This document shows positions 46,080-63,855 of a DNA stretch of 64,000 nucleotides, in pieces. The DNA is from Falsochrobactrum shanghaiense. Lineage in GTDB: Bacteria > Pseudomonadota > Alphaproteobacteria > Rhizobiales > Rhizobiaceae. The notes under the pieces are model-generated. The model was not told the origin of the DNA. It was given only the letters and a program-made list of their open reading frames with translations, and ran no database searches. Every line of letters begins with the position of its first letter. The stretch's first letter is position 1. The position numbers and the translations under genes were made by a program. The stretch lies in contig NZ_QGDB01000001.1 in the NCBI RefSeq assembly GCF_003149535.1, positions 248,001-312,000 on the forward strand, read 5' to 3'.

Positions 46080-46155
46080 GCCCGGATAGCTCAGTTGGTA
46101 GAGCAGCGGATTGAAAATCCGCGTGTCGGCGGTTCAAATCCGTCTCCGGGCACCA
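46080..46155 (+). tRNA. tRNA-Phe (anticodon GAA), carrying attL
   Basis: A 76-nt cloverleaf with CCA. GCCCGGA pairs with TCCGGGC, the anticodon arm is GCGGA-TTGAAAA-TCCGC giving GAA, and the T loop is TTCAAAT. From 46107 to its end and four bases beyond, the sequence is repeated exactly at 63803-63855. The element therefore supplied the 3' half and kept the gene functional. Confidence 0.96.
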
Positions 46156-46159
46156 CTAA
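46107..46159. repeat. attL, 53-bp core
   Basis: Identical to 63803-63855 base for base. It begins in the anticodon stem (CGGATTGAAAATCC) of tRNA-Phe and ends CACCACTAA. The sequences diverge on both sides, which defines the recombination core. Confidence 0.95.
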
Positions 46160-46218
46160 AAAACCCAACGAAATCAAAGAGCTAGTCTAGATCAAGGCTC
46201 ATAGAAAATCCCAAGAAT

Positions 46219-46304
46219 ATGTTGCAACGTCATGCAACATAAATCCACGTTTTCCGGGCTTTTCAACGTGTTGTAAACTGCTCCATGCAACACATCTGCA
46301 ACAC
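46219..46304. repeat. TGCAACA/TGTTGCA motif cluster near attL
   Basis: ATGTTGCA (46219-46226) and TGCAACAT (46233-46240) form an inverted pair 6 bp apart. GTGTTGTA is at 46268-46275 and direct TGCAACAC copies are at 46286-46293 and 46297-46304 (11-bp period). The same octamer in both orientations recurs at 62521-62556 before int. This spacing is typical of integrase arm or excisionase sites. The gap 46156-46504 otherwise shows no credible gene. Confidence 0.6.
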
Positions 46305-46504
46305 GCTAATGATTGATAATCGCCCGACCGGCAACCGCCGGATGGTTTACGCCAGCAGCAAGGCCGGTCGGGCTACCCTGCCCGGTTTTGGGCAGGGGGC
46401 TTGCTCCTCGTGTTCTGGTCCGCCGAACGGCTGGTGAGGCCGCCGGGAATGGGAGCAGGCCTTTATCGCCCGCTTCCCGACTTGCCGCTCGGGACGGCAA
46501 GGAT

Positions 46505-46581
46505 GGAGGATCTGGCCGGGTACGATCCGGCAACCTGCCGTTTAGAAGACGGCTGCGCTATCCAGTTGCGCCACAGATCCA
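46505..46581 (-). tRNA. Element-borne tRNA-Arg (anticodon TCT)
   Basis: On the minus strand GGATCTG pairs with CAGATCC, the D stem is GCGC/GCGC, the anticodon arm is GCCGT-CTTCTAA-ACGGC giving TCT, and the T stem is GCCGG/CCGGC. CCA is encoded after a T discriminator (46508-46505). The T loop is ATCGTAC rather than TTCRANT, so T54 is not conserved. It would read AGA, a rare codon in high-GC alphaproteobacteria. Confidence 0.85.
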
Positions 46582-46778
46582 ATAGGTTGGACGGGCCTGC
46601 GGAGAACAAACATCCCGTCCCGCAGCTTCGGGCCATGCACGAACCCGTCGCTGCTGCGGCCACACACAAAAAGGCCGCGGAAACTTGTTAGTTGGGGTGG
46701 CCGGATGTGCCAGAGCCATGCCAGTAGTGAACTCCATATGGCGGAGCTGATGAAGAAGCCCATCGATAAGTCACTCAT
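46542..46778 (-). CDS. Small putative membrane protein, 78 aa
   Basis: ATG 46778 overlaps the preceding stop by 4 bp and has GGGAGGG about 5 nt upstream. The N-terminus (MSDLSMGFFISSAIWSSLLA, WLWHI) is a likely membrane span. The last 13 codons run through the first half of the tRNA-Arg gene on the same strand, giving the VAQLDSAAVF wording common to tRNA-derived frames. The C-terminus may therefore be incidental. No family recognised; position near lysis or accessory genes is possible but unsupported. Confidence 0.5.
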   Translation of the reverse strand: MSDLSMGFFISSAIWSSLLAWLWHIRPPQLTSFRGLFVCGRSSDGFVHGPKLRDGMFVLRRPVQPIGSVAQLDSAAVF

Positions 46779-46981
46779 GCCACCCTCCCATTCGCCATCA
46801 GCGTCAACTCATATGCATCATGCGCCCGATCCAGTTCCGCGGCTTTGTCGGCCAATATCCGGATGAGGTATGGAGATGCGCGATTGAACAAATCTTCGTC
46901 GTGCATATCGAGATGCAAAAGCGTGTCGGCCAATGCGCGGACTTCGCAAACGTGATTGCTGATGTCATAGAAGGTGCTCAT
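46775..46981 (-). CDS. Small phage protein, 68 aa, unknown
   Basis: The frame from ATG 46981 reads MSTFYDISNHVCEVRALADT, then LLHLDMHDEDLFNRASPYLI and RILADKAAELDRAHDAYELT. It is largely alpha-helical and soluble. Its start overlaps the upstream stop (ATGA at 46981-46978) and its stop overlaps the next start, so it is the middle gene of a three-gene coupled unit. Function unknown. Confidence 0.6.
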   Translation of the reverse strand: MSTFYDISNHVCEVRALADTLLHLDMHDEDLFNRASPYLIRILADKAAELDRAHDAYELTLMANGRVA

Positions 46982-47205
46982 GGCCGCCCTCCTGCTGCGG
47001 ACCAAAGAAGACTGTCAATCTCACGATGCAGGCCATACAGCGGAATCGTCCCTAGATTGGCTGGCGTTCCGTCCGTCAGCATGTCCATAACGCGAATGGC
47101 CGCGTCCAATCGTCCGAAAGCATCATCAAGCCCGAAAATCAGGTCTCTCGCGACTTCTACCCTTTCAGGCAAAGCGGTGTCGTTTGCTCGCACGGGGTGC
47201 TGCAT
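46978..47205 (-). CDS. Small phage protein, 75 aa, unknown
   Basis: ATG 47205 has AGGAGAT 7 nt upstream. The protein (MQHPVRANDTALPERVEVAR, then DLIFGLDDAFGRLDAAIRVM) is helical and acidic. It is the first gene of the leftward trio and divergent from the XRE regulator, whose control region (47206-47405) it shares. Function unknown. Confidence 0.62.
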   Translation of the reverse strand: MQHPVRANDTALPERVEVARDLIFGLDDAFGRLDAAIRVMDMLTDGTPANLGTIPLYGLHREIDSLLWSAAGGRP

Positions 47206-47353
47206 GGCGGTATCTCCTCAACTGTGGGGTTCCTGATTGACCGGGCATACCGAGGACGGGTTGCGAACGCTCTGTGGACCGGCCAATCAGGAATTAGTAA
47301 TCTGTTAAGCGTGCTGCGCGGTTTGCGTTGCAGTGTTCTGATTTCGTGATAAT

Positions 47354-47399
47354 GTACCGATACCAATACAAAATCAGTACGTCAAGCGGAAATCGGTAC
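47354..47399. promoter_or_regulatory. Candidate operator of the XRE regulator
   Basis: GTACCGAT (47354-47361) and ATCGGTAC (47392-47399) form an inverted pair 30 bp apart, with another GTAC at 47377-47380 between them. They lie just upstream of the regulator start and between two divergent units, as phage repressor operators do. Confidence 0.45.
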
Positions 47400-47643: not shown

Positions 47644-48099
47644 ATGTCCACCAAGCCCATTTTGATCTACAAGTTAACACCGGTACAGATTGCGCTTGTT
47701 GACCGCATCGCAGCCACTGAAACAGGGTTGCTTATGGACAAAATGGAATACCCAGAAATCGTTGCGTATCAGGAGCTGGCCAAGCTCGGCTTTGTCGATA
47801 TGCAAGTACCAAGGCGCGGCAAGATTACCCTCGTACTAACCGCAGCAGGCGCGCAGCTCAGCACCAGCGGTTATATATCCAAGAAGCCTGTACTGCGCCT
47901 CACGCAGCCACAAATAGCTGCCCTGCGCCTTGTGTCCGGCAACCGGCTGCGGTTCAATGACGTTCCAGCAAAGGCTGTCGATGTCGTACGCAGAATGGCA
48001 CTCCGCGGCTGGATTATATATGAAGAAGATAGTGACGGCACCTATTGGGCACGCATTACCACTGAAGGCTGGCGGATACTGAAGCTTGTGGATCTGTGA
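47644..48099 (+). CDS. Tandem winged-helix-like protein, 151 aa, unknown
   Basis: The protein has two halves of similar plan. LTPVQIALVDRIAATETGLL...YQELAKLGFVDMQ...KITLVLTAAGAQL is followed by LTQPQIAALRLVSGNRLRF...VVRRMALRGWIIYE...WARITTEGWRIL. Each half looks like a helix-helix-helix-wing module. It is co-transcribed with the XRE regulator (4-nt gap). DNA binding is inferred; no family recognised. Confidence 0.6.
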   Translation: MSTKPILIYKLTPVQIALVDRIAATETGLLMDKMEYPEIVAYQELAKLGFVDMQVPRRGKITLVLTAAGAQLSTSGYISKKPVLRLTQPQIAALRLVSGNRLRFNDVPAKAVDVVRRMALRGWIIYEEDSDGTYWARITTEGWRILKLVDL

Positions 48100-48130: not shown

Positions 48131-48787
48131 TCAACCTCCAGCGCTCCTACGCTTTGGCGACCGCCGCGGTAGATCACCTGAAGGTCGCTCGGGGAAGGGC
48201 TTTAGGTTTTTGGGCGGATACCATGACTTCACGCGCGGCAACGGCTTCTTGACGCCCTGTTGGTGCAAATAGAGACCAGCTGTCAAATATGCATCCTCCA
48301 GCGCGCCGTGGCGCTGACCCACACGAGAAAGACCAATCTTTGACAGGCAATGATCAAGCTTGGCCGACTCGCCTCTCCATATCTCGCGTGCGCGTTCCAT
48401 GGTGCAATAAATCGGATGGTCCAGCATATCGACTTCTGCCTTACGAAACTCCCGCTGGATGTATCGCATGTCGAACTCTGCGTTGTGCGCCACGATTTCA
48501 TCGGCCCATGAGAACCACTTTCGCAATGGCGCGGCCAGATCGGCAAACAAATCCTGGTAACGAGTCATCCAATTATCATAGCCATGGACGGCTTCAGCTT
48601 GCGGGTGACTATCCTTGCGAGGATCAAAGATTAAGTGCAGCGATTGCCTTTGAAGCTCGTCGCCCTCGACTTTGACCGCGCCGATCGTGATTATTCTGTC
48701 GAAGGGCAGAACCCCAGTTGTTTCAGTGTCCACGACGATCACGCGCTTCTTTCGCGTATGAACTGCCGGATTAATTATCTCTGTCAT
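48131..48787 (-). CDS. DEDDh 3'-5' exonuclease (DnaQ-like)
   Basis: The product is 218 aa. Exonuclease motif I is VIVVDTETTG, motif II is EIVAHNAEFDMRYI and motif III is RHGALEDAYLTAGL (H-x4-D), the full DEDDh set of Pol III epsilon-type proofreading nucleases. The C-terminal 40 residues are basic and proline-rich. ATG 48787 is chosen with a G-rich site upstream. It is the last gene of the leftward late region, 220 bp beyond the tape-measure stop, and convergent with the 151-aa gene. Confidence 0.87.
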   Translation of the reverse strand: MTEIINPAVHTRKKRVIVVDTETTGVLPFDRIITIGAVKVEGDELQRQSLHLIFDPRKDSHPQAEAVHGYDNWMTRYQDLFADLAAPLRKWFSWADEIVAHNAEFDMRYIQREFRKAEVDMLDHPIYCTMERAREIWRGESAKLDHCLSKIGLSRVGQRHGALEDAYLTAGLYLHQQGVKKPLPRVKSWYPPKNLKPFPERPSGDLPRRSPKRRSAGG

Positions 48788-49007
48788 TCTGCCGCCCCCC
48801 AGATAACCAGAGGCAAGCATATTTCAAGGCAGAATTGAAGGGCAAGGAATATGCCGGCCAGTTTTATCAGCCACCCAACCCAGTTGCTTGCCTTCCTCAG
48901 TCTTTCTGGCAAGGCTCGTTTATAGGGCCTTGGGAGTGGCGGAGGGTCGGCTCCGCACCTCTAACTGATTGAATTAATCCGTTGCGGGAATACCCGCTTC
49001 GGGGAAG

Positions 49008-50972
49008 TTACCGAATCATCCCGCGCTGGCGCGCCTGCTTCACGCCACCAGCAACGGCATTGGCAAAATAAGGTGTTTTCTGCCAAGCCTGAATACCTTT
49101 CTCAACTCCGGCCTTCACCATCATGGCAACTTCCGCATTCCCGGTTGCGCCATCAACATTGACGTTGATCACGGGTGCACTGTTGATGGCGCTATTATTA
49201 TTCGTGACGTTCGAGATGTTCGGCATTTTCGGTACGGCAGGCATGCTGAAGCCCGGTGCACCGCCCACATCGTAACCGCGCAGGCCGCGCCGCATTGCCT
49301 CGACGGTCGCCACGCCTCCATGACGCGCCACGTCTTTCTGCGACCAGACGACTTCGCCTTTATGCACAACTCCGGCAGGTTCCTTCACGCCACCGGGGCC
49401 AGTGTAGCCGCCTTTGTCATACAGCCCGATACCGCCGTTCATAGCGATGCCCATCTGGCCGCCGCCGAACAGCCCGAGGATGGAACCGAAGATGCCGCCG
49501 CCGCCAGCCTTGTTGACCTGAAATATCGCGTCGAGCACTTCGTTCAACAGGCGGTCTGCGACACGGCCCAGAGCATTAGAAAGAGCATCAGCGGCGCTCT
49601 CTCCATTCATCAGGCTGGACACTAACGTCCCCGTAGCCTCGCGCGCGGCGTCGTTCATCGCCTCGTACTGGCTGCGTGCCGCTTCAACGGCCTCGCGTTC
49701 GGAATAGATCGCCTCCACGATGCGGGAAATTTCTTCGCGCTGCTCTGCTGTGGCGGCGGCACCGGCCATACGCAAGGCGTTGGACTTCGCGCGCTGGACG
49801 TCGCTGGCGCCCACCAACCGCAGTTCCTCTGACAAGTTATCGATTAACTGTTGTACGGCTTCGGCTTCCCGCAAGGCACGTTCGGCGGCGGTGTTGCGGC
49901 TACTGCCCGACTTACCTTTACCGCCTTCTTTGGTGCCTTGCGGGATAATCGTAACCTTTGCCGGATCATTAGATTTATAACGCCGATCAAGGGCCTCCAC
50001 CAGCTTCTGATTCGCATCTGCCATTTCGGGGCTGATTGGTTGACCAGCCATGCGCCTCGCCAAGCGGTTTTCAGGCGTATCTCCCTTGAGCATCATGCCG
50101 CCAACGACGCGGCCTGCTTCTGCGGCAGCCAGTCTCTTTTCATAGTCATCAAACGCGCCACGCAGTTGCGTCATTGCGTCGATGGCAGTCATAATCGCGT
50201 TTTTGGAGTTGATCTCGAAATTGCGCCATGTGTTCGTCCAGGCAACGTCAAGCTCGGCGGCACGTTTGATCAACTGCGCATCGATAACCCCGCCCGCTTC
50301 TTCGGTCTTCTGGCGCATGTTGTCGATTGCGCTGGCACCATCTTTAAACACATTGACCAAGGCTGCACCTTCGGAATCGAAGGCCTTAAACGCCAGTAGG
50401 AGCCGCTCTTGTTCTGAACCCGCGTTTTTTATCAGGTTTGCATAATCGCGAAGTATATCGACTTGATTGCGCATGGTGCCATCCGCATTGCGCAGTTGGA
50501 CATTATTGGCTTGCAGGACATCTTTGAGGACGCCCGAGCCGTTTGCAGCCTCGCCTACACGGCGCGAAAAACGCTGCATTGCTGTATCGAGATTGTTCAC
50601 ACCCACGCCGGACAGGCTCGCGACATGACGTAATTGCTGTAACGCATCCGTTGTTAAGCCGACCTTCGCCGCTATATCGCCGATACTTGTCAACTCCGCA
50701 ACGACGCTGCGAACACCTCGCGCTAGTCCTTCAAAGCCGCCGACTAAGGCGCCGCCGGCTAGACCTCCAATAAAGGCTTTGCCAAGCCCTCCTATTGAAG
50801 ATGTCAGCTTTGAAAACTGCCGGTCGACACGGGAAACCATCGTCTTGGCGCGCTTTTCAACGCGGCCCATCTGCTGGTCAGAGACCTGCACGCCGCGCTT
50901 CATGGCCTTTTCAAGTTTATCGACGCGCGCGACGACGTCCACCATAAGTTTTCTTGAGGCGTTATTAGCCAT
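49008..50972 (-). CDS. Phage tail tape-measure protein
   Basis: The product is 654 aa. It has the typical tape-measure layout. An N-terminal helical coil reads MANNASRKLMVDVVARVDKL on to about 55. A hydrophobic Gly-rich stretch follows (LGKAFIGGLAGGALVGGFEG, about 63-82), then long helices with Ala/Glu/Arg repeats. A Gly-rich segment (NKAGGGGIFGSILGLFGGGQ) precedes a C-terminus with Asn repeats (NISNVTNNNSAINS). AGGAG precedes ATG 50972, 8 nt after TerL. It is the only tail-length or tail-shaft protein seen in the element. At about 0.15 nm per residue it would set a tail of roughly 100 nm. Confidence 0.88.
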   Translation of the reverse strand: MANNASRKLMVDVVARVDKLEKAMKRGVQVSDQQMGRVEKRAKTMVSRVDRQFSKLTSSIGGLGKAFIGGLAGGALVGGFEGLARGVRSVVAELTSIGDIAAKVGLTTDALQQLRHVASLSGVGVNNLDTAMQRFSRRVGEAANGSGVLKDVLQANNVQLRNADGTMRNQVDILRDYANLIKNAGSEQERLLLAFKAFDSEGAALVNVFKDGASAIDNMRQKTEEAGGVIDAQLIKRAAELDVAWTNTWRNFEINSKNAIMTAIDAMTQLRGAFDDYEKRLAAAEAGRVVGGMMLKGDTPENRLARRMAGQPISPEMADANQKLVEALDRRYKSNDPAKVTIIPQGTKEGGKGKSGSSRNTAAERALREAEAVQQLIDNLSEELRLVGASDVQRAKSNALRMAGAAATAEQREEISRIVEAIYSEREAVEAARSQYEAMNDAAREATGTLVSSLMNGESAADALSNALGRVADRLLNEVLDAIFQVNKAGGGGIFGSILGLFGGGQMGIAMNGGIGLYDKGGYTGPGGVKEPAGVVHKGEVVWSQKDVARHGGVATVEAMRRGLRGYDVGGAPGFSMPAVPKMPNISNVTNNNSAINSAPVINVNVDGATGNAEVAMMVKAGVEKGIQAWQKTPYFANAVAGGVKQARQRGMIR

Positions 50973-50980: not shown

Positions 50981-52585
50981 CTATACTGAGAAAAATGCAT
51001 AATCGTCCGGCGCATCGTCATAGGACGAACGGCCCGATGCGCCTTGTGCGGCACGCGAAACAGCCATGATGCTCGCAACACATGGATCGATACGATCGGC
51101 AGACTTGTTCTTAGCTGGCCTGCGATTGTCGTTCTGGTCACGCATCATGACCGTGTTACCCACGGCCCACCGTAGGAGCGGGCTGTCATGCACAAGCCGG
51201 CGATTGAGAAACATGTCCTCGAACGTGTCGACCGGCTTGGCGAAGTTCATGAGCGTTTGCGGGAACGCCGCGACTGGAATGCCGTCGCGTTCTAGCGATT
51301 CCATCATCTCGCGGGCCATGGCCACGTCAAAGACGACCTCGTGCACTTCAAAGCGGTCGCATAGCTCGCGGATATATCCTTCAACCGTGCCGTAATCGAC
51401 AATATCGCCCTCGCAGGCAGTCAGCCATCCTTCATCGCGCCACTGCGAGTAAGGTGCGCTGTCCTCATCGGCGCGTCGGCGTAATTGAGCTTCAGGAGAA
51501 AAGCCCATGACGTGCAACGCAAACTTATCGTCATCCAGTTCAATGGCGCAGGCCACCGCCGATAGATCGATGCGCTTGGATAAATCCACTCCTATCCACG
51601 CGCGGCGACCTGCCAGCGCTTCAAGGTCAATCTCGCCATGCCCTTCATCCCAGATCGATAAGTCCCATTCGGGATTGGCGGCGCCGTCAAGCCAGACCGA
51701 TAAGTGTAGCCGCTTGAACGACTCGCGTTCGCTGGGGCTGTGTTCGCACTTCTCTATATAGCGCCGCAGTTTTCGGATATTCGGATAACCGTGCCGCAAG
51801 CCGGGATTGGTTGCGAACAGCCATTCCTCGTCACGGAAATCGACGTCACGCGGCGCTTCAAACAGAATCGGCAGGAATGTTTCATCCTGCACGCGACCGT
51901 CAACGATCTTCCGCGCATGGTCATATTTCGCATAGAACGGCCCTAGCTGACCGATGCCCGCCGTTGACGCAGAAAGCAGGAGGGTATTCTGCCCCTTATT
52001 GAGCGTCGTTTCGGCAGCTTCAATAAGGTCAAACTTGGTTTCGCAATGGCCCTCATCCCAGAAGACGGCCACATCAGAACGTCCATGTGCAGACTTGGCG
52101 TCGGAAGACAGGGCTTCATAGACAATGTTATGCTTTGTGTATGTGATGCGCTTGGCACTGTCCTGAATATGAACGGCCTCTAGAATGCGCGGCGTTGCTC
52201 GGCATATGCCGGCCATTTCGCGAAACGTCAGGCCAGCTTGGTCGCGGGCATTGGCGATGCTGCTGATCGATGACATGGGCACGCGCTCCGGCCCGATCAG
52301 ATGAAGCATGAGGCAGGCAGCCATAAGACTTGTCTTACGGTTGCCGCGTCCGACCATAAGAAATAACTCTTGAATTTTCCGCGTGCCGTCCTCGGCGGTA
52401 TCGCCATAAATCTTGCGAACTATGCGTTCCTGCCACGGATCAAGGACGAATGCCCGCCCCGGCAGGCTGGATTTTGGATGTCTCAGCGCTTTAATAAACT
52501 TGACGGCAGCTTCGCCCTTACCGTGAGGATCAGGGATCGGGCTATCGTCAAATATCCACGCCAAATTCGGCAGCCTCTCCGTCAC
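50981..52585 (-). CDS. terL: Terminase large subunit
   Basis: The product is 534 aa. The ATPase P-loop is GRGNRKTS (79-86), Walker B is DVAVFWDEGH (171-180, WDE 176-178) and the coupling region is LLLSASTAG. The RNase-H-like nuclease domain includes WIGVDLSKRIDLSAVACA, VVFDVAMAREMME and KSADRIDPCVASIMA. It is a HK97/P27-associated TerL that packages DNA through the portal. The GTG start at 52585 has GGAGG 8 nt upstream and overlaps terS by 38 bp. Confidence 0.93.
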   Translation of the reverse strand: MTERLPNLAWIFDDSPIPDPHGKGEAAVKFIKALRHPKSSLPGRAFVLDPWQERIVRKIYGDTAEDGTRKIQELFLMVGRGNRKTSLMAACLMLHLIGPERVPMSSISSIANARDQAGLTFREMAGICRATPRILEAVHIQDSAKRITYTKHNIVYEALSSDAKSAHGRSDVAVFWDEGHCETKFDLIEAAETTLNKGQNTLLLSASTAGIGQLGPFYAKYDHARKIVDGRVQDETFLPILFEAPRDVDFRDEEWLFATNPGLRHGYPNIRKLRRYIEKCEHSPSERESFKRLHLSVWLDGAANPEWDLSIWDEGHGEIDLEALAGRRAWIGVDLSKRIDLSAVACAIELDDDKFALHVMGFSPEAQLRRRADEDSAPYSQWRDEGWLTACEGDIVDYGTVEGYIRELCDRFEVHEVVFDVAMAREMMESLERDGIPVAAFPQTLMNFAKPVDTFEDMFLNRRLVHDSPLLRWAVGNTVMMRDQNDNRRPAKNKSADRIDPCVASIMAVSRAAQGASGRSSYDDAPDDYAFFSV

Positions 52586-52955
52586 CGCGTGCGCCTCCGC
52601 TATTCTTGTTGCGACTGGCCGGTGTCAGGCCAAGTTCTGCGGCAAGCCGTCTGGCGGCTTCCAGATTTTCTTTCAGGATGGTTGTTTCGGGCCGTCGCTT
52701 AGGACCGCTATCGGACTCAAAGGTCAAACCATGCAGACGAACCGCTTCCTCGGCCTGCCTCATGGTTGCGACCGCCAGACAATAAGCTTCAACCGTCTGC
52801 AATTCATGAGCGGCGATCTTACGATCAGCTACCAGTTGCGGCACGACACGGCGCCACTCGGCCTTGCCATGCGCTGGCATCCATGCAGGCGGTTTCGGTG
52901 CTTCGGCCAATGCGCCATCGAGCGCCCGTACTTCTGCTTTCCTGCCCCTAGCCAT
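52548..52955 (-). CDS. terS: P27-family small terminase subunit
   Basis: The product is 135 aa. MARGRKAEVRALDGALAEAP, then PAWMPAHGKAEWRRVVPQL, then HELQTVEAYCLAVATMRQAE is the P27 small-terminase pattern. A tail such as GPKRRPETTILKENLEAARRL and LAAELGLTPASRNK is also typical. It recognises the packaging start on the element DNA. Its ATG lies inside the end of the head-closure gene (8-bp overlap). Confidence 0.9.
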   Translation of the reverse strand: MARGRKAEVRALDGALAEAPKPPAWMPAHGKAEWRRVVPQLVADRKIAAHELQTVEAYCLAVATMRQAEEAVRLHGLTFESDSGPKRRPETTILKENLEAARRLAAELGLTPASRNKNSGGARGDGEAAEFGVDI

Positions 52956-53265
52956 TCAATGCCACACAGCGCAATTCCAGACCGCGCCGCCTTCCTATCG
53001 TTTTTATCTGCTTGAGATTATACGACCGCCCGTCGTGAACGACGCTCATGTCTAACGTGACGCCATCAATGAACCGCGTGCGGAAGATCGTGACTCTTTC
53101 GGTGCTGGTGCCGTAATTGCGCATATATTCATCGGTTGATTCTTCGATAATCTGCGCGCGCAAGGTGGCGTGATCGACTTCGACACGCACCTGCCCGCCA
53201 TAGCCGTCATCAACATATGTGGCACCGCGCAGCGTGATCGTTTCAGCGAGTTTTCCTGCCCTCAT
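52948..53265 (-). CDS. Phage head closure (stopper) protein
   Basis: The product is 105 aa and matches the SPP1 gp16/HK97 head-tail adaptor family: MRAGKLAETITLRGATYVDD, then GYGGQVRVEVDHATLRAQI, then STERVTIFRTRFIDGV and GRSYNLKQIKTIGRRRGLEL. It seals the portal after packaging and provides the tail docking site. It overlaps the neighbouring starts by 4-8 bp. Confidence 0.85.
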   Translation of the reverse strand: MRAGKLAETITLRGATYVDDGYGGQVRVEVDHATLRAQIIEESTDEYMRNYGTSTERVTIFRTRFIDGVTLDMSVVHDGRSYNLKQIKTIGRRRGLELRCVALNG

Positions 53266-57119: not shown

Positions 57120-57498
57120 CGTCAGCCTCCACTGATGCGCCAGATCCAAAGACGAGTTCAGTTAGCAGATCGATCGCAATGGGCGCGTAATTGCCGGGCG
57201 CTTTTGACACGACGGCCACGACGTCCGGGTGAGGCGTGTATGAAAGACGATATTGCAGCGCGCTGCCCCATCTGCCCATCTGCTTCATCAGACTCCACTC
57301 CCGCGCTAAATGGGGAGTGGGGCCGTGTAGGGCGAAGGAAAGCACGAGTGCAACATCATCGATGCTCCAGTCGCCAGCGGTAAAAAGCTGCAAGTAGGCA
57401 TAGACCGATTTGCGAGGCGTGATTTGCTCGAACAAAGCGGGGTCTTTGACTCTGAAGGTGCGCTCGACACCATCAAAATCACGAGTGATTTCAACCAA
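57112..57498 (-). CDS. 128-aa phage protein between portal and protease, GTA-gp10-like
   Basis: A TTG start at 57498 has AAGGAA 8 nt upstream. The protein begins MVEITRDFDGVERTFRVKDP and contains YLQLFTAGDWSIDDVALVLS and GNYAPIAIDLLTELVFG. The opening is reminiscent of the GTA-gp10/tail-chaperone group, but that would be an unusual location. The assignment is weak. It overlaps the protease start by 8 bp and follows the portal by 23 bp. Confidence 0.6.
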   Translation of the reverse strand: MVEITRDFDGVERTFRVKDPALFEQITPRKSVYAYLQLFTAGDWSIDDVALVLSFALHGPTPHLAREWSLMKQMGRWGSALQYRLSYTPHPDVVAVVSKAPGNYAPIAIDLLTELVFGSGASVEADDE

Positions 57499-57521: not shown

Positions 57522-58727
57522 TTATGCCGCAGGCTTTGTTTCTGCCGTTGGCTCTTGCGCCTGCACTTGAATGGCAGGGTTCTGGTACACGTCTCCGCCC
57601 TCACGAGGAGGAAGGTCCAGCAACCAAGTGCGAGCCTCGTTCGGGGAGATCGATGTATTGGAAATAAGTGATGAAACCGCCGTGGCGCGTTCGGTCAGGC
57701 TGGCGCGGGTCAGGTCATCGCGGTCAAACAGGATGCGATGATTGCGCCGCTCGTCATCGGTGAGCAAAGCCCGCCCATAGGCACCTTCAAGCTCTCGCAG
57801 CCAAGGTTCCAAGCAGTATGTCAGAAACTCTCGCCCCATCTGCTCGGCATTGCCCCATGTTCCACGCTCAAGGTCGAATATCATTGTGGGCGGCACACGG
57901 AAGGCGCGGGCGATTTCCTCGTTCTGGAACCGGCGATTTTCGAGAAACTGCGCATCGGTGGATGAAAGACCGAGCTGCGTGTAGTCGGTGCCATCCCATA
58001 GCACTGGCGTCTTCCCTGCATTCTGGGAGCCGGAGAAAGCCGCAGTCCATCCTTTCAGCATCGCCTCCACGCCCCGATCACCGATGGGCTTTGTCGTCTT
58101 CAAAAGGCCGCCCGGTCGTGCGCCGTTCTGGAACAATTGCCGTCCATAGGCTTGCAATCCTCTGGCAAAAGCGATGGCGTCGCGCGCATGACTGATCGGT
58201 GCCGTATTGAAAGCGTTCCGAACATGTATGACGTCGCTGGAGCGAAGAGCTTTGCCGTTCTTTTTATATAAGGGCTGGCCGTCGCCTTCTGCCGAAAACT
58301 CGACTTGGATTATGCCGGGCTTATACTTGCGGATCGCAATCGGTCGGTTGTCGCTGGATCGCGTCACAAGCGCAAAGCCGCCGGGATCGGACGTCAGCGT
58401 CTCAATGAGCAAGCCGCGCGTCAGTTCAAAGCCGCTGGTCCATTCGTTCGCCTCATTGTTCAAAAGCTTGACGGCTGGATGATTAGGCACGTCCTTCCAG
58501 ACGCCGCCAACTTTTCGTTGGACGCGAACATCCAATGAAGCCGCAGCTTCGCTTATGAGGCGGATCGCCGATGCAACCGCTGGCACCTGCAAGGCAGTGT
58601 GCGCGGTCGCTGCGATGTCGTCCGGGCCACCACCGAAGTGCGCAACAAACCAGCCTTCAGGGCTTACTATGTCGCTGCTGGCCTTGGTTTCTTCGACGGG
58701 CGCGGTTTTCGTTTGGAACGGCCACAT
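57522..58727 (-). CDS. HK97-family portal protein
   Basis: The product is 401 aa. The pattern includes VPAVASAIRLISEAAASLDV, HPAVKLLNNEANEWTSGFEL, DVIHVRNAFNTAPISHARDA, GRQLFQNGARPGGLLKT, RRFQNEEIARAFRVPPTMIF and CLEPWLRELEGAYGRALLTDDE. It forms the dodecameric DNA channel at one capsid vertex. Its ATG shares one base with the stop of the upstream gene. Confidence 0.94.
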   Translation of the reverse strand: MWPFQTKTAPVEETKASSDIVSPEGWFVAHFGGGPDDIAATAHTALQVPAVASAIRLISEAAASLDVRVQRKVGGVWKDVPNHPAVKLLNNEANEWTSGFELTRGLLIETLTSDPGGFALVTRSSDNRPIAIRKYKPGIIQVEFSAEGDGQPLYKKNGKALRSSDVIHVRNAFNTAPISHARDAIAFARGLQAYGRQLFQNGARPGGLLKTTKPIGDRGVEAMLKGWTAAFSGSQNAGKTPVLWDGTDYTQLGLSSTDAQFLENRRFQNEEIARAFRVPPTMIFDLERGTWGNAEQMGREFLTYCLEPWLRELEGAYGRALLTDDERRNHRILFDRDDLTRASLTERATAVSSLISNTSISPNEARTWLLDLPPREGGDVYQNPAIQVQAQEPTAETKPAA

Positions 58728-59149
58728 TAGTATGCCCCTTCCACACGCTGGATCAGCATGTGCATCATCTGTTTAATCGGAATGATGGCAACTGGCCTGT
58801 CATCGAGATTGGGCGCGTCAGTGAGTTCAAATTCGGAAAAACCGACGCGCCGCCTGATGGCGACATATTTCTGCGCTGGCATTTCATAGAGCGAGTCATT
58901 GGCGATCTTCCCCGCCTCACCCATGGCCGTGCGCACCGCCACGCCATAAGCCGTAAATTCGCGGATAAGGCTGTAAAAAAACAAGTCGGCCCCGGACAGG
59001 AAAACCCGGCCACCAGTCTTTGCACCGGCAAAATCCCCTGAAGGTTCTCGGGCCATCCATGTTCGCAGGGTGTCCTCTGGTATTGCTAAAATTGCGGCGG
59101 ATTCGGCCACGCCAAAGGCGGCCCGCCTCCACCTGTCTGGAAGGTGCAT
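58727..59149 (-). CDS. HTH-containing phage protein upstream of portal, 140 aa
   Basis: ATG 59149 has AAAGGA about 8 nt upstream; a TTG at 59164 is also in frame. Residues about 12-35 (AFGVAESAAILAIPEDTLRT, WMAREP) look like a MerR/excisionase-type winged helix. The rest (LSGADLFFYSLIREFTAYGV, VGFSEFELTDAP) is not recognised. As first gene of the head operon it may be a late regulator or a DNA-binding packaging factor; both are guesses. Confidence 0.65.
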   Translation of the reverse strand: MHLPDRWRRAAFGVAESAAILAIPEDTLRTWMAREPSGDFAGAKTGGRVFLSGADLFFYSLIREFTAYGVAVRTAMGEAGKIANDSLYEMPAQKYVAIRRRVGFSEFELTDAPNLDDRPVAIIPIKQMMHMLIQRVEGAY

Positions 59150-59706: not shown

Positions 59707-60555
59707 CTATGCCGCCTTCGATCGCCCATAAATCATGCCCGGCTTCGTGGTTATGTCCTTGCCGAAGTATAGAATATTCTCCGCATCTCGCTTGTCCCCA
59801 GCCTTTCGGACCGCCTCGTCAGCTAGCCGTGCCTGCACCGCTGCCAGACGATTGTCCCGGTTCCACGCATCGCGAACCGCATCCACGGCGGCGTATACCA
59901 GCGCCTTGCCCGCTGCGCTGGCCTGCTTACCCTTAAAGCCATGATGCTCGCCAATCCGCGTCATCGTCATGCCGCCTATCGCCGCATCTTCAAAAACGTC
60001 AAGCAAAGGCCCCACAGCGGCCCGTAACGGCCCAATGACGGCCTTCGCGTCAATGTGAGCAATGATGCTGCCCTCACCGATCGTCGGCACTGTGGGGGCT
60101 TGTGCGCGGCGGGGAATGTCATCGGCGGTAACAGTGTTGCGGTTGCCGTATGAAGTTGCCACCTTTGCGGAAATGCGCGCGCCATGATCACGCATCCTGC
60201 CATCGTCATCGAAGCTAGTTCGGCGGGCAACGTCGATGCCCTGCGTTCCGACTTCGGCTTGGATGTCCTCTTGCGGCAGCCCAGCTACATCCACAAGATA
60301 ACGATAGCGCCGGATCATCGCAGCATCGTCAGGGCGTTTATCGCGGACCAGCGCTTCGCAGATCGGGATCGCCGGTTCGTTATCATTGGCCGGTGAACTG
60401 CGCTCGCGCGGCTTCCATCCTCGCGGCTCTGGCTGTGGCTTTGTCGGCAATCGTGTCACTGTGGCACCTTCCATTTTTTTTGCCAGCCATTCGCGGGCTG
60501 CTGCTTTTTCTGCCGGGATGTCGATCGGCAGTTCGTAAGTTTCTGGATGTTTCAT
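59707..60555 (-). CDS. Early-operon phage protein, 282 aa, unknown
   Basis: The protein begins MKHPETYELPIDIPAEKAAA and has a polar, Pro/Arg-rich first 70 residues, a helical middle (DAAMIRRYRYLVDVAGLPQE) and a C-terminal helical part with MTMTRIGEHHGFKGKQASAA, GKALVYAAVDAVRDAW. The IGEHHGFKGKQASAAGKALV stretch could be an HTH. No family recognised. It overlaps the replication-like gene by an ATGA and is last in the early operon, a common place for a regulator of late transcription. Confidence 0.7.
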   Translation of the reverse strand: MKHPETYELPIDIPAEKAAAREWLAKKMEGATVTRLPTKPQPEPRGWKPRERSSPANDNEPAIPICEALVRDKRPDDAAMIRRYRYLVDVAGLPQEDIQAEVGTQGIDVARRTSFDDDGRMRDHGARISAKVATSYGNRNTVTADDIPRRAQAPTVPTIGEGSIIAHIDAKAVIGPLRAAVGPLLDVFEDAAIGGMTMTRIGEHHGFKGKQASAAGKALVYAAVDAVRDAWNRDNRLAAVQARLADEAVRKAGDKRDAENILYFGKDITTKPGMIYGRSKAA

Positions 60556-61592
60556 GCGGTATAAAACTCCATGCTATCGTCGGGCATCAACCGAAAGCGA
60601 ACCCGCGCACCTATGGTTTCTTTTTCGCCCCCGCAAGATTCGATAAGGGCGGCAGCTTGCGGAGAGGTCAGGCGCATCTTTGATTCCTCGCCATCAATGA
60701 TGACGCGCATGATTGCGCTGCCGTCTGGATTTGTTTCACCCGATACGATGTCTGCCGTCTGCCACGGCAGAGGATCGGCACGCCTGATCTCTTTAGGGCC
60801 AGTTCGGTTCACGGACATGGCGATCTGAGTTCCGATTATGTATTCCGTATCACCATCAATGCCTATGGCGTCATCAAGAGCACAATATTCCTCGCTCTCG
60901 ATATGGCAGCGCAAAACAAATTTACGATTTGCGCCGCTCCGAAGGTGAGCTACGAACACATCCTCGTCCTCGCCTTCATATTCAGCATGAACGATTTTCC
61001 ATCGGGCAAAACCGGGTTGCGCGCGCGGGTTGTTTTTCTTTTCTTTTAATGGCGCCACTCCCTGCGCGCCCCCCAAAGGGCGCGCTCCTGTAGGGGCGCC
61101 TATACATCCTCGTAGAGGATGGAATTGGGCCCCCACTTGGGGACCACCCCCATGCATATCTGGGGGCCACCCCCCTATGCAATCTTGGGGGGCACCCTTA
61201 TGCATATACGGGGGGCTCCCCTGCGCATCCTTGGGGGCCACCTTGCGGCAATCAGAAATAGGCTTGCCACCGTTCATATGCCGAGTATAGGCGCTGCCGC
61301 GAAAAAACCAGTTCACATCCCAGAGCGTCGATTCCGTGAAGGTGTGCTCTTTCTTTACCGATACTCGACCGCTGGCAATCAGTGATGGCTTATACTTCTT
61401 CACCATTTTCACGGTCGTGCCGGCGCCGACTGCGATGAATGAGTTGCTGCATTCCGCAGCCATGCGCGCATTGCTCCAGTGCTTGACAATAACCGAAATC
61501 ATACGCTTTTGAAGGTCGGTCAGGGTTGTGTCTTCCTGCATGTCTTCTCGGAAGGCGGCTTTGTCCTTTACGCGGATTCTATGCCACGCCAT
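60552..61592 (-). CDS. Replication-initiator-like protein with embedded iterons
   Basis: The product is 346 aa. Residues 1-100 carry a winged-helix-like domain (LTDLQKRMISVIVKHWSNAR, GAGTTVKMVKKYKPSLIASG, RVSVKKEHTF). A Gly/Pro/His-rich linker (about 125-185) is encoded by five GC-rich 23-25-bp DNA repeats. The C-terminal part (about 190-346) is a beta-rich domain that is not recognised (FVLRCHIESEEYCALDDAIG, MRLTSPQAAALIESCGGEKE). HTH proteins with repeats inside the gene recall lambda O, whose gene contains the origin. ATG 61592 overlaps the preceding gene by 14 bp. Confidence 0.7.
   Translation of the reverse strand: MAWHRIRVKDKAAFREDMQEDTTLTDLQKRMISVIVKHWSNARMAAECSNSFIAVGAGTTVKMVKKYKPSLIASGRVSVKKEHTFTESTLWDVNWFFRGSAYTRHMNGGKPISDCRKVAPKDAQGSPPYMHKGAPQDCIGGWPPDMHGGGPQVGAQFHPLRGCIGAPTGARPLGGAQGVAPLKEKKNNPRAQPGFARWKIVHAEYEGEDEDVFVAHLRSGANRKFVLRCHIESEEYCALDDAIGIDGDTEYIIGTQIAMSVNRTGPKEIRRADPLPWQTADIVSGETNPDGSAIMRVIIDGEESKMRLTSPQAAALIESCGGEKETIGARVRFRLMPDDSMEFYTA
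61128..61245. repeat. Five iterons, candidate replication origin
   Basis: On the plus strand G-runs start at 61139, 61162, 61187, 61210 and 61233 (steps of 23, 25, 23, 23). Between them lie units of the form ATGCATATCTGGGGGCCACC with flanking C-runs. Because 23 and 25 are not multiples of three, each copy is read in another frame of the host gene. Conservation is therefore at DNA level. Confidence 0.7.
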
Positions 61593-61914
61593 TCGCTGGG
61601 GCCTTCCGCCACTGGAAATTAGCACGATAGATGGCTACCCCCGCCTCTGTGGTGCCGATGCGCTGTATGATGTCGTGCTGCTTCAATTGCTTCACTGCGG
61701 TATCAATAGTGCGACGACAAACCCCACAGCGGCGCCCATATTCTTTATGAGAGACACTGGATTCTCCGTGCAGAAGCGTATTCCTGCCCACGTTCATCGC
61801 AATCGCAATGCCAGCACTGCGTTTGATTACCGTCTCAATTTCGTACGACCAATCCCAAAGGATGGTCGCCTGATCCTCGGTCAAATCGAGAGGCGCTGCC
61901 TCAATCTTTTTCAT
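61579..61914 (-). CDS. HTH early protein, 111 aa
   Basis: From ATG 61914 the protein reads MKKIEAAPLDLTEDQATILW, then IETVIKRSAGIAIAMNVGRN, then VSHKEYGRRCGVCRRTIDTA and VKQLKQHDIIQRIGTTEAGV. The middle is a winged helix of the replication-accessory type (EYGRRCGVCRRTIDTAVKQL as recognition part). It lies directly upstream of the initiator-like gene with a 14-bp overlap and probably works with it. Confidence 0.7.
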   Translation of the reverse strand: MKKIEAAPLDLTEDQATILWDWSYEIETVIKRSAGIAIAMNVGRNTLLHGESSVSHKEYGRRCGVCRRTIDTAVKQLKQHDIIQRIGTTEAGVAIYRANFQWRKAPANGVA

Positions 61915-61953
61915 GGTGTTTCCTTTTAACCGGCAATGCGCCAAGCTCGCTAA

Positions 61954-62175
61954 TTATGCCGGGGCGATAGGCCAGCCTTTTTCATCGAATTCGATTTTCG
62001 GACCGGTTTTCTCTGAGGGGCGCTCGGACATGACCGCTTCAATGGCAAGGATGGCCAGATGGGCTTCACCAAGCATTTTTGCAGTCTTCGGGTCATCATC
62101 GTTTTCAAGACGATCCACCAAATCACGGCGGTGCATTTTCATAAGTTCAAGAAGTGAAGAATAGTCGTTTTTCAT
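61954..62175 (-). CDS. Small early protein, 73 aa
   Basis: ATG 62175 overlaps the AlpA-like gene stop by 4 bp. The protein is MKNDYSSLLELMKMHRRDLV, then DRLENDDDPKTAKMLGEAHL, then AILAIEAVMSERPSEKTGPK, then IEFDEKGWPIAPA. It is helical, with a conserved-looking C-terminal GWPIAPA. Unknown function. Confidence 0.65.
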   Translation of the reverse strand: MKNDYSSLLELMKMHRRDLVDRLENDDDPKTAKMLGEAHLAILAIEAVMSERPSEKTGPKIEFDEKGWPIAPA

Positions 62176-62369
62176 GCCGCCTCCTGCCTTTCAATAAATT
62201 CCAGAATTTTGGATTTCCGAGCACATACAAGGTCGCCCATTTTGAAGGTCGGGAAGGCCCGTTTGGCCGCTAAATGGTAGATAGTCCTGGCCTTCATTCC
62301 GGTAAAATCTGCAATGGCATCGGCGCCGACCAGAAGGTCAGAAGCAAGGTCGTCATTGGCAGCCTGCAT
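62172..62369 (-). CDS. AlpA/excisionase-like HTH protein
   Basis: The product is 65 aa. LLVGADAIADFTGMKARTIY followed by HLAAKRAFPTFKMGDLVCAR and KSKILEFIERQEA is the MerR-like winged helix of AlpA/excisionase proteins (HTH_17). AAGGAA precedes ATG 62369. It is the first gene of the leftward early operon and lies next to, and divergent from, int. It is a good candidate for recombination directionality factor or master activator. Confidence 0.8.
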   Translation of the reverse strand: MQAANDDLASDLLVGADAIADFTGMKARTIYHLAAKRAFPTFKMGDLVCARKSKILEFIERQEAA

Positions 62370-62471
62370 TTATTTTTTTCCTTTTTCGTTTTTTGTGCTT
62401 GACACAGTTTTGATAAAATCCTAGTTATTCCCCATAAGGACAATTGCGCCTTCATTTCTGAAGCGCAACGG

Positions 62472-62500
62472 ATTGAAAGCGACTCCACGCCGTTTGTCAA
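62472..62500 (-). promoter_or_regulatory. Leftward early promoter
   Basis: On the minus strand TTGACA (62500-62495), a 17-bp spacer and TTCAAT (62477-62472) form a sigma-70-type promoter about 100 nt upstream of the AlpA-like gene. A plus-strand TTGACA at 62399-62404 with TAGTTA 17 bp on is a weaker candidate for int. Confidence 0.6.
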
Positions 62501-62520
62501 GTGGCTCCGCTTGTTGTTAT

Positions 62521-62556
62521 GTGTTGCACATATTCCGCGTGTCGGTTATGCAACAC
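62521..62556. repeat. Inverted GTGTTGCA/TGCAACAC pair before int
   Basis: GTGTTGCA (62521-62528) and TGCAACAC (62549-62556) lie immediately upstream of the integrase start at 62558. They are the same octamer as at 46286-46304 near attL. Confidence 0.65.
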
Positions 62557-62557
62557 T

Positions 62558-63757
62558 ATGGCAATTCGAAAACGTACTCTCCCATCAGGCAAAATCGCTT
62601 GGCTCGCCGAATATCGTGACGGTGACGGCAAGCGCAGATTCAAACAGTTCGTCCGTAAAAAAGATGCCGATGATTTCCTGCTAACCGTGCGCGGCGAGGT
62701 CCGCCAAGGCGTTCACGTCGCGGAATCCGAAAGCGTCACTGTCAAGAAGGCTGGCGAGCTATGGCTTGCAGCGGTGGATGCGCGCGGCCTTGAGCGCACA
62801 ACAGCGAATCAATACCGCCAGCATGTCGAACTTCACATCGTGCCGTTCATAGGGGCAACGAAGCTATCGCGCCTGAATATCGCGTCGGTCCGCGCGTTTG
62901 AAGATAAGCTGCGCGAAGAAGGTCGGTCGCCCGCGATGGTCCGCAAGGTACTGGTCAGTCTCGGTTCGCTGCTTGCCGATGCGCAGGATCGCGGATTGGT
63001 CGTGCGCAACGTCGTGCGCGAGAAATCGAAAACAAGATCATCGACAAGCCGCCAAGAAAAACGCCAGAAAGGCAAATTGAAGGTGGGCGTCGATATTCCG
63101 ACACCGGGAGAAATTCGGTCGATAATCGGTGCGCTTGAAGGTCGCTGGCGGCCATTATTCCTCGTCGCTATCTTCGCCGGCCTGCGCGCATCCGAATTGC
63201 GCGGCCTGACCTGGTCCAATGTCGATCTTGATAAAGGCGCAATCCAGGTCCGGCAGCGCGCCGACCGCTTCAATGAAATCGGGCCGCCCAAAACAGAAGC
63301 TGGCGAGCGGACAATACCGATCCCGCCAATCGTCATCGATGCCTTGAAGGACTGGAGGCACGAGTGTCCAAAGGGGAAACTCAACCTATGCTTTCCAACC
63401 GGAGCCGGATCGGTAGAAGGTCTGGCCAATATGCGTCGCCGCGGCTGGATAGCCACACAGATTAAGGCTGGCCTTGCCGTCGATACCGGCAGGCAGGATA
63501 AAAACGGGGATCCTATTTTGGATGCGAAATATCCCGGCCTCCACGCAGCTAGGCATTTCTATGCCTCTTGGATGATCAATCGCAAAGAGGATGGCGGCCT
63601 CGGCCTGCCTTTAAAAATGGTGCAAGCCCGCATGGGGCACGCGACGATCAACATTACGGCAGACGTTTATGGCCACTTATTTCCCGGCGCGGATACATCG
63701 GACGAACTTGCCGCAGCACAACACGCCTTACTGGGAGCGCCAAAACCTGCAACATAA
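62558..63757 (+). CDS. int: Tyrosine-recombinase integrase
   Basis: The product is 399 aa. The N-terminal arm-binding part (IRKRTLPSGKIAWLAEYRDG, about 2-60) is followed by a SAM-like core-binding domain (about 62-160). The catalytic domain has R in FAGLRASELRGL, HxxR in GLHAARHFYASW, and Y in RMGHATINITADVYGHLFPG. The last 45 bp before attR are non-coding, so the gene abuts its own site, as expected for tRNA-targeting integrases. ATG 62558 is chosen; a longer frame begins at 62501 but would run through the TGCAACAC motifs. Confidence 0.94.
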   Translation: MAIRKRTLPSGKIAWLAEYRDGDGKRRFKQFVRKKDADDFLLTVRGEVRQGVHVAESESVTVKKAGELWLAAVDARGLERTTANQYRQHVELHIVPFIGATKLSRLNIASVRAFEDKLREEGRSPAMVRKVLVSLGSLLADAQDRGLVVRNVVREKSKTRSSTSRQEKRQKGKLKVGVDIPTPGEIRSIIGALEGRWRPLFLVAIFAGLRASELRGLTWSNVDLDKGAIQVRQRADRFNEIGPPKTEAGERTIPIPPIVIDALKDWRHECPKGKLNLCFPTGAGSVEGLANMRRRGWIATQIKAGLAVDTGRQDKNGDPILDAKYPGLHAARHFYASWMINRKEDGGLGLPLKMVQARMGHATINITADVYGHLFPGADTSDELAAAQHALLGAPKPAT

Positions 63758-63802
63758 TGGAACATATCTTCATTTTTTCCATTACAAATCAATGACTCTG
63801 GA

Positions 63803-63855
63803 CGGATTGAAAATCCGCGTGTCGGCGGTTCAAATCCGTCTCCGGGCACCACTAA
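63803..63855. repeat. attR, 53-bp core
   Basis: An exact second copy of 46107-46159, holding the anticodon stem to CCA end of tRNA-Phe without its 5' half. It marks the right end of the element. The 95 bp beyond, up to the terminator, show no gene. Confidence 0.95.

What the first reader, a model, noticed from the sequence alone, without database searches (positions are those of the whole stretch)
46107..63855. Tail-less, lysis-less head-and-packaging element in tRNA-Phe: candidate capsid-forming satellite
The 17.7-kb element has exact 53-bp att repeats, an integrase, an AlpA-like regulator, an initiator-like gene with iterons, and a complete HK97-type head module (portal, protease, capsid, HNH, connector, gp10-like, DUF3168, head closure, TerS, TerL). 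It has no tail tube, tail tip, fibre, holin or endolysin. Intact frames and many 1-14-bp overlaps argue against decay. Capsid-forming phage-inducible islands known from other bacteria carry capsid and packaging genes and take helper tails. An alphaproteobacterial version would be new to me. The alternative is a siphophage with one clean deletion of tail and lysis genes.
Basis: partly seen in the sequence, partly recalled or inferred. Interest (0 to 1): 0.85.

Follow-up and report, generated by a model that had tools for sequence, protein, structure and literature searches.

The report
Capsid-making satellite with own tail ruler
This is an intact piece of mobile DNA that appears to build its own virus head and to carry the protein that sets tail length, but must borrow the rest of the tail and the means of escape from a helper virus; many relatives share this partial-tail design.

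Summary
The element is real: exact 53-bp repeats, integrase, a complete HK97-type head and packaging module, and no recognisable tail tube, tip, fibre or lysis gene. It is not a freshly deleted prophage. The layout recurs: 44 of 64 assayed related loci carry the tape measure, at tRNA-Phe, tRNA-Pro or next to tRNA-Ser where checked; a same-genus genome has the empty site, and this genome carries a second, diverged element. "Tail-less" is only partly right. The element encodes a tape measure protein, a tail terminator, an HK97-gp10-like completion protein and, unnoticed between portal and protease, a tail assembly chaperone (profile-profile E 2.5e-10). In 64 loci the chaperone never occurs without the tape measure (38 both, 6 tape measure only, 20 neither). 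Best reading: a cf-PICI-like satellite that makes heads and supplies the ruler, chaperone and neck end of its tail, taking tube, tip and lysis from a helper. A resident prophage has the missing tail genes. Putative tape measures in cf-PICIs, and chimeric tails in V. cholerae PLEs, are already in print (PMC12987554); the displaced chaperone, linked module and graded series in Alphaproteobacteria I did not find in the papers searched. No induction or particle data exist.

The parts
46107..46159 (+). att repeat, 3' part of tRNA-Phe (46080-46155)
   Evidence: exact 53-bp repeat; ARAGORN
63803..63855 (+). att repeat, other end
   Evidence: 17,696 bp start to start
46504..46580 (-). tRNA-Arg (tct) carried inside the element
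46775..47205 (-). two small ORFs (76 and 75 aa), divergent from the repressor
   Evidence: no family; the 76-aa ORF has a 59% relative near the same end of L042
47328..47639 (+). CI/Cro-type HTH regulator (candidate repressor)
   Evidence: PF13560 E 3.9e-7; phrog_5823 E 1.1e-5
47644..48099 (+). 151-aa ORF, unknown
   Evidence: nothing significant
48131..48820 (-). DnaQ-like 3'-5' exonuclease, after the tape measure, where some relatives carry a fibre
   Evidence: PF00929 E 6.3e-19; phrog_192 E 2.6e-37
49008..50972 (-). tape measure protein, 654 aa
   Evidence: phrog_10574 E 2.5e-43 and 13 further tape-measure PHROGs
50981..52585 (-). terminase large subunit
   Evidence: PF20441 E 2.5e-38
52548..52955 (-). 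terminase small subunit, P27 type
   Evidence: PF05119 E 2.3e-22
52948..53265 (-). head closure protein Hc1
   Evidence: PF05521 E 2.2e-19
53262..53804 (-). tail terminator (DUF3168/gp17); coding-score start about 53675
   Evidence: PF11367 E 1.4e-24; phrog_176 tail terminator E 3.4e-15; start
53907..54317 (-). HK97-gp10-like tail completion protein
   Evidence: PF04883 E 8.1e-5; phrog_5 E 7.1e-16
54307..54618 (-). head-tail adaptor Ad1
   Evidence: PF05135 E 3.8e-13
54721..55023 (-). 100-aa ORF overlapping the HNH gene, unknown
   Evidence: no hit; 60% relative in L006
54960..55304 (-). HNH endonuclease
   Evidence: PF01844 E 2.8e-8
55456..56601 (-). major capsid protein, HK97 type
   Evidence: PF05065 E 1.5e-61
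56601..57119 (-). prohead protease S78
   Evidence: PF04586 E 4.5e-34
57112..57498 (-). tail assembly chaperone of the GTA-gp10/TAC_11 kind, displaced between portal and protease
   Evidence: TAC_11 E 0.031 alone; family alignment against the alignment of the TAC_11-type relatives: hhalign probability 96.8, E 2.5e-10; a resident prophage protein in chaperone position matches that profile at E 1.9e-20
57522..58727 (-). portal
   Evidence: PF04860 E 2.3e-81
58727..59149 (-). HTH-like protein, 140 aa; many relatives have a gene of 84-147 aa at this place
   Evidence: HTH_17 E 0.018, weak; positions
59707..60555 (-). 282-aa ORF, unknown, conserved in relatives
   Evidence: 75% in L005; no family
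60552..61589 (-). 345-aa ORF with internal iterons, candidate replication initiator (inferred)
   Evidence: no family; iterons
61136..61244 (.). four repeat copies 23-25 bp apart (iteron-like)
61579..61944 (-). 121-aa HTH-like ORF
   Evidence: HTH_Crp_2 E 0.011; phrog_678 O-like initiator E 0.04: weak
61954..62175 (-). 73-aa ORF, unknown
62172..62369 (-). AlpA/excisionase-like regulator
   Evidence: HTH_17 E 0.0018 below cut-off; phrog_18541 E 1.2e-16, unknown; phrog_66 E 0.0041; 62% relative next to the integrase in L042
62561..63757 (+). tyrosine integrase
   Evidence: 90% relative in L042

Best explanation
A cf-PICI-like phage satellite. Shown by sequence: it is integrated at tRNA-Phe, has intact head and packaging genes, and carries four tail-building proteins (tape measure, its chaperone, completion protein, terminator) but no detectable tube, tip, fibre or lysis gene. 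Inferred: when a helper siphophage is induced or infects, the element excises, replicates from its iteron-bearing gene and packages itself into its own heads. Its chaperone loads its tape measure onto the helper's tail tip, helper tube protein polymerises to the length that the satellite's ruler sets, the satellite's terminator and completion proteins cap it, and the tail joins the satellite head through Hc1 and Ad1. Helper lysis releases chimeric particles. With a 654-aa ruler against 923 aa in the resident prophage, its tails should be shorter: scaling the published 95 aa for about 10-15 nm (PMC12987554), by about 28-42 nm.
For: Recurrence: 3 of 3 named relatives end in the same way and 44 of 64 assayed loci have the tape measure. 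TAC and TMP together in 38 of 64, neither in 20, TMP alone in 6, TAC alone in 0; completion protein plus terminator with TMP in 36, without TMP in 0. L058 lacks TAC, completion protein, terminator and TMP all at once, while its sister L060 (support 100/99) has all four. Window against L042: dN/dS 0.04-0.14 for portal, protease, MCP, Ad1, completion protein, TerS, TerL, integrase and the 282-aa ORF, 0.19 for Hc1; not computable for TAC, terminator and TMP, where dS is saturated. Tail-facing genes diverge apart from the head: MCP 93%, portal 88%, TerL 88%, but TAC 58%, terminator 54%, Hc1 50%, TMP 42%. The first 65 aa of TMP are 69-87% identical in 5 of 10 satellite pairs compared (those among window, L042, L006, L062), while the next bin is 24-29% in the window's three. 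A resident prophage on C12 has matches to the tube, distal tail, hub and megatron proteins of Mesorhizobium phage vB_MseS-P1; by BLAST its 923-aa TMP matches only a C-terminal part of the window TMP (338-603), the end that faces the tip in phage 80alpha (PMC11661146, passages seen). PLE precedent: satellite TMP found in virions, tails about 10 nm shorter, tmp deletion cuts transfer (PMC12987554, section 8 read).
Against: No induction, particle, transduction or proteomic data. The helper is a guess by gene content, and its completeness and lysis genes were not tested. The window's own chaperone is weak by direct search (E 0.031; 0.016) and its predicted fold gave no PDB match and only sub-threshold viral matches. 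The Fisher figures treat related loci as independent; on the tree only 5-7 well-supported independent pairs exist, TAC and TMP move together in 2-5 of them and never oppositely, and p is 0.0625 or more. Both ends of TMP resemble phage TMPs in most satellites, so a clean 'satellite N-end, phage C-end' mosaic is not shown; against L007, L099 and L044 the first 65 aa are only 26-43% identical.
Confidence: 0.6

Rival explanations
1. A satellite that takes finished helper tails, as classical cf-PICIs are said to do, while its TMP and TAC act as decoys that disturb helper tail assembly or are passengers.
For: Related elements without TAC and TMP exist (20 of 64) and presumably take whole tails; TMP is the fastest diverging gene of the module among seven close elements.
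Against: TMP starts 8 bases after TerL, with intact frame, and keeps the phage-like stretch near 520-585; it comes with the completion protein and terminator that would cap a tail built on it; PLE TMPs are structural (PMC12987554).
Confidence: 0.2
2. A siphophage that recently lost tail and lysis genes in one deletion.
For: TMP is the last late gene, where a phage would continue with tip genes (compare).
Against: Same end point in several species and tRNA sites; terminase order differs from the resident prophages and two annotated phages (TerS-TerL after the neck, not before the portal); the window's TerL sits in a 30-row group with full support that holds no phage row, inside a wider 57-row group without full support (93/75) that also holds none; the best-ranked phage TerL among 2,111 phage records with a match is 31%; low dN/dS.
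Confidence: 0.04
3. A self-sufficient small phage whose tube, tip and lysis genes are too diverged to recognise.
For: Several ORFs have no family (282, 345, 151, 100, 75, 76 and 73 aa), and distant kin encode a tube that tblastn missed.
Against: Tube profiles from kin and from phages give no hit up to E 10 in the element; most unknown ORFs lie by the integrase or repressor; none has the size of a tip protein; distal tail, hub and megatron proteins of vB_MseS-P1 hit 0 of 80 sequences (79 loci and the element) while hitting the resident prophage.
Confidence: 0.06
4. A gene transfer agent or other domesticated capsid locus.
For: The chaperone belongs to the GTA-gp10 family; public annotation calls relatives 'gene transfer agent family protein'.
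Against: Integrase, exact att repeats and an empty site, patchy occurrence (6 of 35 genomes of the genus with a TerL at E 1e-60), circular plasmid forms.
Confidence: 0.04

Closest known systems
[quoted passage not shown] Alqurainy et al. 2023, not held, known here through passages of PMC10690885, PMC11389934, PMC10448857)
   Same: HK97-type capsid, protease, portal, connectors, TerS, TerL, HNH; no lysis genes found; needs tail parts from elsewhere; integrase and att.
   Different: No Pri-Rep found; carries tape measure, chaperone, completion and terminator proteins. PMC12987554 Extended Data Fig. 10b (legend seen) already shows a sampling of cf-PICIs with putative tmp genes; their hosts are not in the legend.
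V. cholerae PLE satellites (PMC12987554, section 8 read)
   Same: Satellite-encoded TMP and TAC; there the TMP is shown to enter chimeric tails that are shorter as predicted.
   Different: PLEs take the helper capsid, add a baseplate hub protein and use a contractile-tailed helper; no gene-level relation was tested here.
Putative E. coli satellites in PMC10448857 (passages seen)
   Same: Own capsid genes with a putative TMP and few other tail genes.
   Different: By the authors' account those lack terminase genes, protease, an alpA homologue, adaptors and Pri-Rep.
Alphaproteobacterial siphophages (Mesorhizobium phage vB_MseS-P1, Rhodobacter phage RcapNL) and the resident C12 prophage
   Same: Same kinds of neck, terminator, TAC and TMP proteins.
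   Different: TerS/TerL stand before the portal; vB_MseS-P1 is annotated with tube, distal tail, hub, peptidase, megatron and fibres besides.

Membership tests
cf-PICI | own capsid, protease, portal, connectors, TerS/TerL, HNH | tested here: met
cf-PICI | AlpA regulator beside integrase | tested here: inconclusive
   sub-threshold HTH_17 and weak phrog_66 hits
cf-PICI | Pri-Rep replication initiator | tested here: not met
   no family for the 345-, 282- or 121-aa ORFs at useful E; one representative each of two gene groups in kin gave AAA_25 or DUF927
cf-PICI | depends on helper only for tails, no tail genes of its own | tested here: not met
   TMP, TAC, terminator, completion protein present; no tube or tip found
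cf-PICI | no lysis genes | tested here: met
   no holin or endolysin family among the scanned ORFs
cf-PICI | specific integration with att repeats and empty site elsewhere | tested here: met
   (same-genus genome G431: one match over query 1-651 of 653, 85%)
cf-PICI | helper induction and transfer in small-headed particles | not testable with these tools
   needs experiment
TAC_11 / GTA-gp10 tail assembly chaperone (57112-57498) | sequence homology to the family | tested here: met
   through family profiles only; direct Pfam hit below cut-off
TAC_11 / GTA-gp10 tail assembly chaperone (57112-57498) | fold match to a solved chaperone | tested here: not met
   pLDDT 88 model, no PDB match at E 0.001, viral matches E 0.01 or worse, some named chaperones and some tube proteins
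siphophage tape measure protein (49008-50972) | homology along most of its length to known tape measures | tested here: met
complete temperate siphophage | tube, tip and lysis genes | tested here: not met

The most novel reading that the evidence does not exclude
Alphaproteobacterial satellites form a graded series of tail theft. Some bring no ruler and take whole tails; the window's group brings ruler, chaperone, completion protein and terminator and takes tube and tip; others, including the second element of this very genome, also bring a tube and would take only the tip; some add their own fibre or spike. The ruler-chaperone-neck set is gained or lost largely as one module, so satellites differ in how much of the helper tail they replace.
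Probability: 0.45. Interest if true: 0.78.

Novelty: new variant of a known kind. Interest (0 to 1): 0.62.

Why it matters
In the papers that I could search, chimeric tails are shown only for PLEs, with TMP genes in other satellites noted as putative. This family gives an independent, widespread and head-making case. Its comparative record (ruler, chaperone, terminator and completion protein largely present or absent together; one genome holding a tube-less and a tube-bearing element beside a candidate helper) makes the question of how satellites reprogramme tail assembly directly testable. It also shows that viral contig collections hold many such satellites: 26 of the 44 IMG/VR matches lie on contigs of 13-20 kb.

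Tried and rejected
A single clean deletion of a prophage was rejected on recurrence, selection and gene order. A GTA was rejected on integrase, att, empty site and plasmid forms. My first negative, that tube proteins of three phages hit 0 of 80 sequences by tblastn, was misleading: family searches then found a diverged major tail protein in kin (phrog_158 in L044, L099 and L110; by profile in 10 of 64 loci, 0 of the 26 with TerL 53% or more). The window element stayed negative with those profiles. In one search the control was partial: the vB_MseS-P1 tube, distal tail, hub, megatron, TAC and TMP hit the resident prophage, but its peptidase and terminator and all five RcapNL proteins did not, so their absence from satellites (terminator apart, which hit 36) says nothing. 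A mosaic TMP was only half supported: 45 of 48 N-ends and 41 of 48 C-ends hit one of the TMP sequences of four phages. Structural confirmation of the chaperone was weak. The E. coli cf-PICI of EDL933 could not be located for comparison, and two IMG/VR elements had no near match in E. coli genomes. L006 has no match to the window's integrase and no att repeat was found for it or, in the part held, for L007, so their ends are not fixed. A first gene caller over-called antisense frames and was replaced.

Counts and dropped rows: of 85 mapped loci, 3 duplicates (L050 identical to the window's genes, L055, L059), 4 loci set aside by me as phage-type on gene order (L047, L048, L123, L125; L125 is a short piece and unsure), 3 without TerL, 8 without a portal hit and 3 without TMP and under 1 kb after TerL were left out, giving 64; the window is not among them. 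The 85 include 32 of the 38 places listed, plus the C22 place. The post-TMP scan used 120 of 132 proteins and showed only the first 25 of 75 families, so single hits may be missing; 18 of those 120 were rescanned with full listing. The 80 sequences are 79 loci (the 3 duplicates included) and the element. The six loci with TMP but no TAC are L072, L103, L107, L121, L122, L124; in L107 and L122 the TMP lies far upstream. L079 has a tube without TMP. The tree has 77 rows; the pair tests used 61, the window among them; it warns of long branches among phage rows. 5 of the 22 TerL clusters were mixed and counted by majority.

Papers: PMC12987554 section 8 read whole, other passages seen; PMC10448857, PMC11389934, PMC10690885, PMC11661146, PMC13345588 passages only; three key papers not held. 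Paper searches made; one search listed no paper with a cf-PICI term and so tells nothing. The gene order of E. coli cf-PICIs is not known to me.

Full report
Observation. The element spans 46107-63855, bounded by exact 53-bp repeats 17,696 bp apart, one in tRNA-Phe. Its genes were checked by Pfam and PHROGs. Head and packaging genes are complete and intact. The integrase is clear; the AlpA-like gene is weak; the 345-aa 'initiator' has no family but holds four iteron-like repeats. No tube, tip, fibre or lysis family was hit.

The element is not tail-less. The 654-aa tape measure protein is strongly supported. The small ORF between portal and protease gave only a weak TAC_11 hit (E 0.031). The gene at that place in a relative (L098, the one representative scanned of a 21-member group) hits TAC_11/GTA-gp10 at E 2.4e-24. 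A profile of those 21 genes finds, at E 1.9e-20, a protein in the chaperone position, between terminator and tape measure, of a resident prophage, and reaches the window's own family through L007 at 1.2e-9. Profile against profile, the window's family (16 members) and the 21 match with probability 96.8, E 2.5e-10. A third version in the second resident element hits phrog_313 'tail assembly chaperone', E 5e-15. The predicted fold adds little.

Not a one-off deletion. TerL relatives in named genomes: Ochrobactrum sp. CM-21-5 (88%, same tRNA-Phe site, its own two copies sharing an exact 48 bp), Limoniibacter endophyticus (84%, next to tRNA-Ser) and an alphaproteobacterial MAG (78%, next to tRNA-Ser), with the same order and no recognisable tail gene after the tape measure. 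In IMG/VR 44 loci were found, 26 of them on contigs of 13-20 kb. In the order, 33 of 397 genomes have a TerL at E 1e-60 or better, and in the genus 6 of 35, this genome counted in both. This genome holds a second element on contig C22 with exact 51-bp repeats at tRNA-Pro, about 18.9 kb, TerL 44%, TMP 33%. A same-genus genome has the uninterrupted tRNA-Phe site.

Selection and divergence. Against L042, head, packaging and integrase genes show dN/dS 0.04-0.14 and Hc1 0.19 (dS above 1, so rough); TAC, terminator, Hc1 and TMP are at 58, 54, 50 and 42% identity beside MCP at 93%. TMP gave 0.35 and 0.27 against L006 and L051. Among seven close elements, TAC and TMP are low together or high together, with TMP the least conserved. 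In the pairs among window, L042, L006 and L062 that were compared, the first 65 residues of TMP are 69-87% identical; against L007, L099 and L044 they are 26-43%. A stretch near 520-585 is shared with phages.

Linked module. Over 64 loci with portal and TerL: 38 have TAC and TMP, 20 neither, 6 TMP only, none TAC only (Fisher 1.2e-11, related loci not independent; in 22 TerL clusters of 70% identity, by majority with 5 mixed, 13, 6, 3 and 0, p 0.001). Completion protein plus terminator with TMP: 36; without TMP: 0; TMP without both: 8. On the TerL tree TMP changed at least 9 times and TAC 10; in 5-7 independent pairs they change together in 2-5 and never oppositely, too few for significance. 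L058 lacks TAC, completion protein, terminator and TMP at once beside its sister L060, which has them. In phage 80alpha the tail completion protein (equated there with HK97 gp10) and TMP meet at the neck, and the TMP C-end meets the tip (PMC11661146, passages seen), which would explain why they travel together.

Graded tails. Members with TerL 46% or less include 10 of 38 loci with a diverged tube, the second resident element among them (phrog_158 E 1.6e-24); 0 of 26 with TerL 53% or more have one. A plasmid form, pMPOP02 of Methylorubrum populi, is annotated with tube, chaperones and tape measure in the same order. Some members carry a fibre or spike after TMP (L060, L068, L073), others a fibre and no TMP (L076, L077). 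Distal tail, hub and megatron proteins of vB_MseS-P1, which do find the resident prophage, hit 0 of 80 sequences.

Helper. A prophage on contig C12 (L048-L049) matches the tube, distal tail, hub and megatron of vB_MseS-P1, has a 923-aa TMP whose C-terminal part matches the window's, and shares a fibre cassette with satellite L068. It is a candidate only; its completeness was not tested.

Mechanism. See best explanation. Shown: gene content, integration, recurrence, selection, linkage. Inferred: induction, replication, chimeric tail, release.

Known and new. Satellite TMP in chimeric tails is shown for V. cholerae PLEs, and putative tmp genes in a sampling of cf-PICIs are in print (PMC12987554). 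Strict cf-PICI membership fails on Pri-Rep and on 'no tail genes', so I call it cf-PICI-like. I did not find the displaced chaperone, the linked module or the graded series in Alphaproteobacteria in the papers searched, but the main cf-PICI papers are not held.

Noticed in passing
G000 contig C22, L044:3088 to L045:2107: A second, diverged satellite at tRNA-Pro with exact 51-bp repeats, own TAC, TMP and a major tail protein.
   Followed up: partly
window 46504-46580; L042:18951-19027: A tRNA-Arg (tct) gene is carried inside the element and in its Ochrobactrum relative.
   Followed up: no
L147 (NZ_CP157016, Paracoccus marcusii, 17.5 kb circular) and L148 (pMPOP02, 23.4 kb): Relatives recorded as plasmids, one with a replication initiation protein, one with a Tn3-type element inside: extrachromosomal satellites or captured replicating forms.
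   Followed up: partly
L149:20162-22879; L111:10645-14295: Tape measures with peptidoglycan-cutting domains; the S. meliloti one is listed in the plasmid table as a predicted vanY resistance gene (30.7% identity), likely a false call.
   Followed up: no
L076:11754-14426, L077:11911-14094, L060:13744-16203: Satellites that carry a tail fibre protein of one family (phrog_38233), with or without TMP.
   Followed up: partly
post-TMP slots of related loci: Single hits to BstA abortive infection and HicB-like antitoxin families: possible anti-phage cargo; whether inside the elements was not checked.
   Followed up: no
L049:14568-16253 and L068:8511-10343: A fibre cassette shared between the resident prophage and a satellite (one protein 62% identical).
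   Followed up: partly
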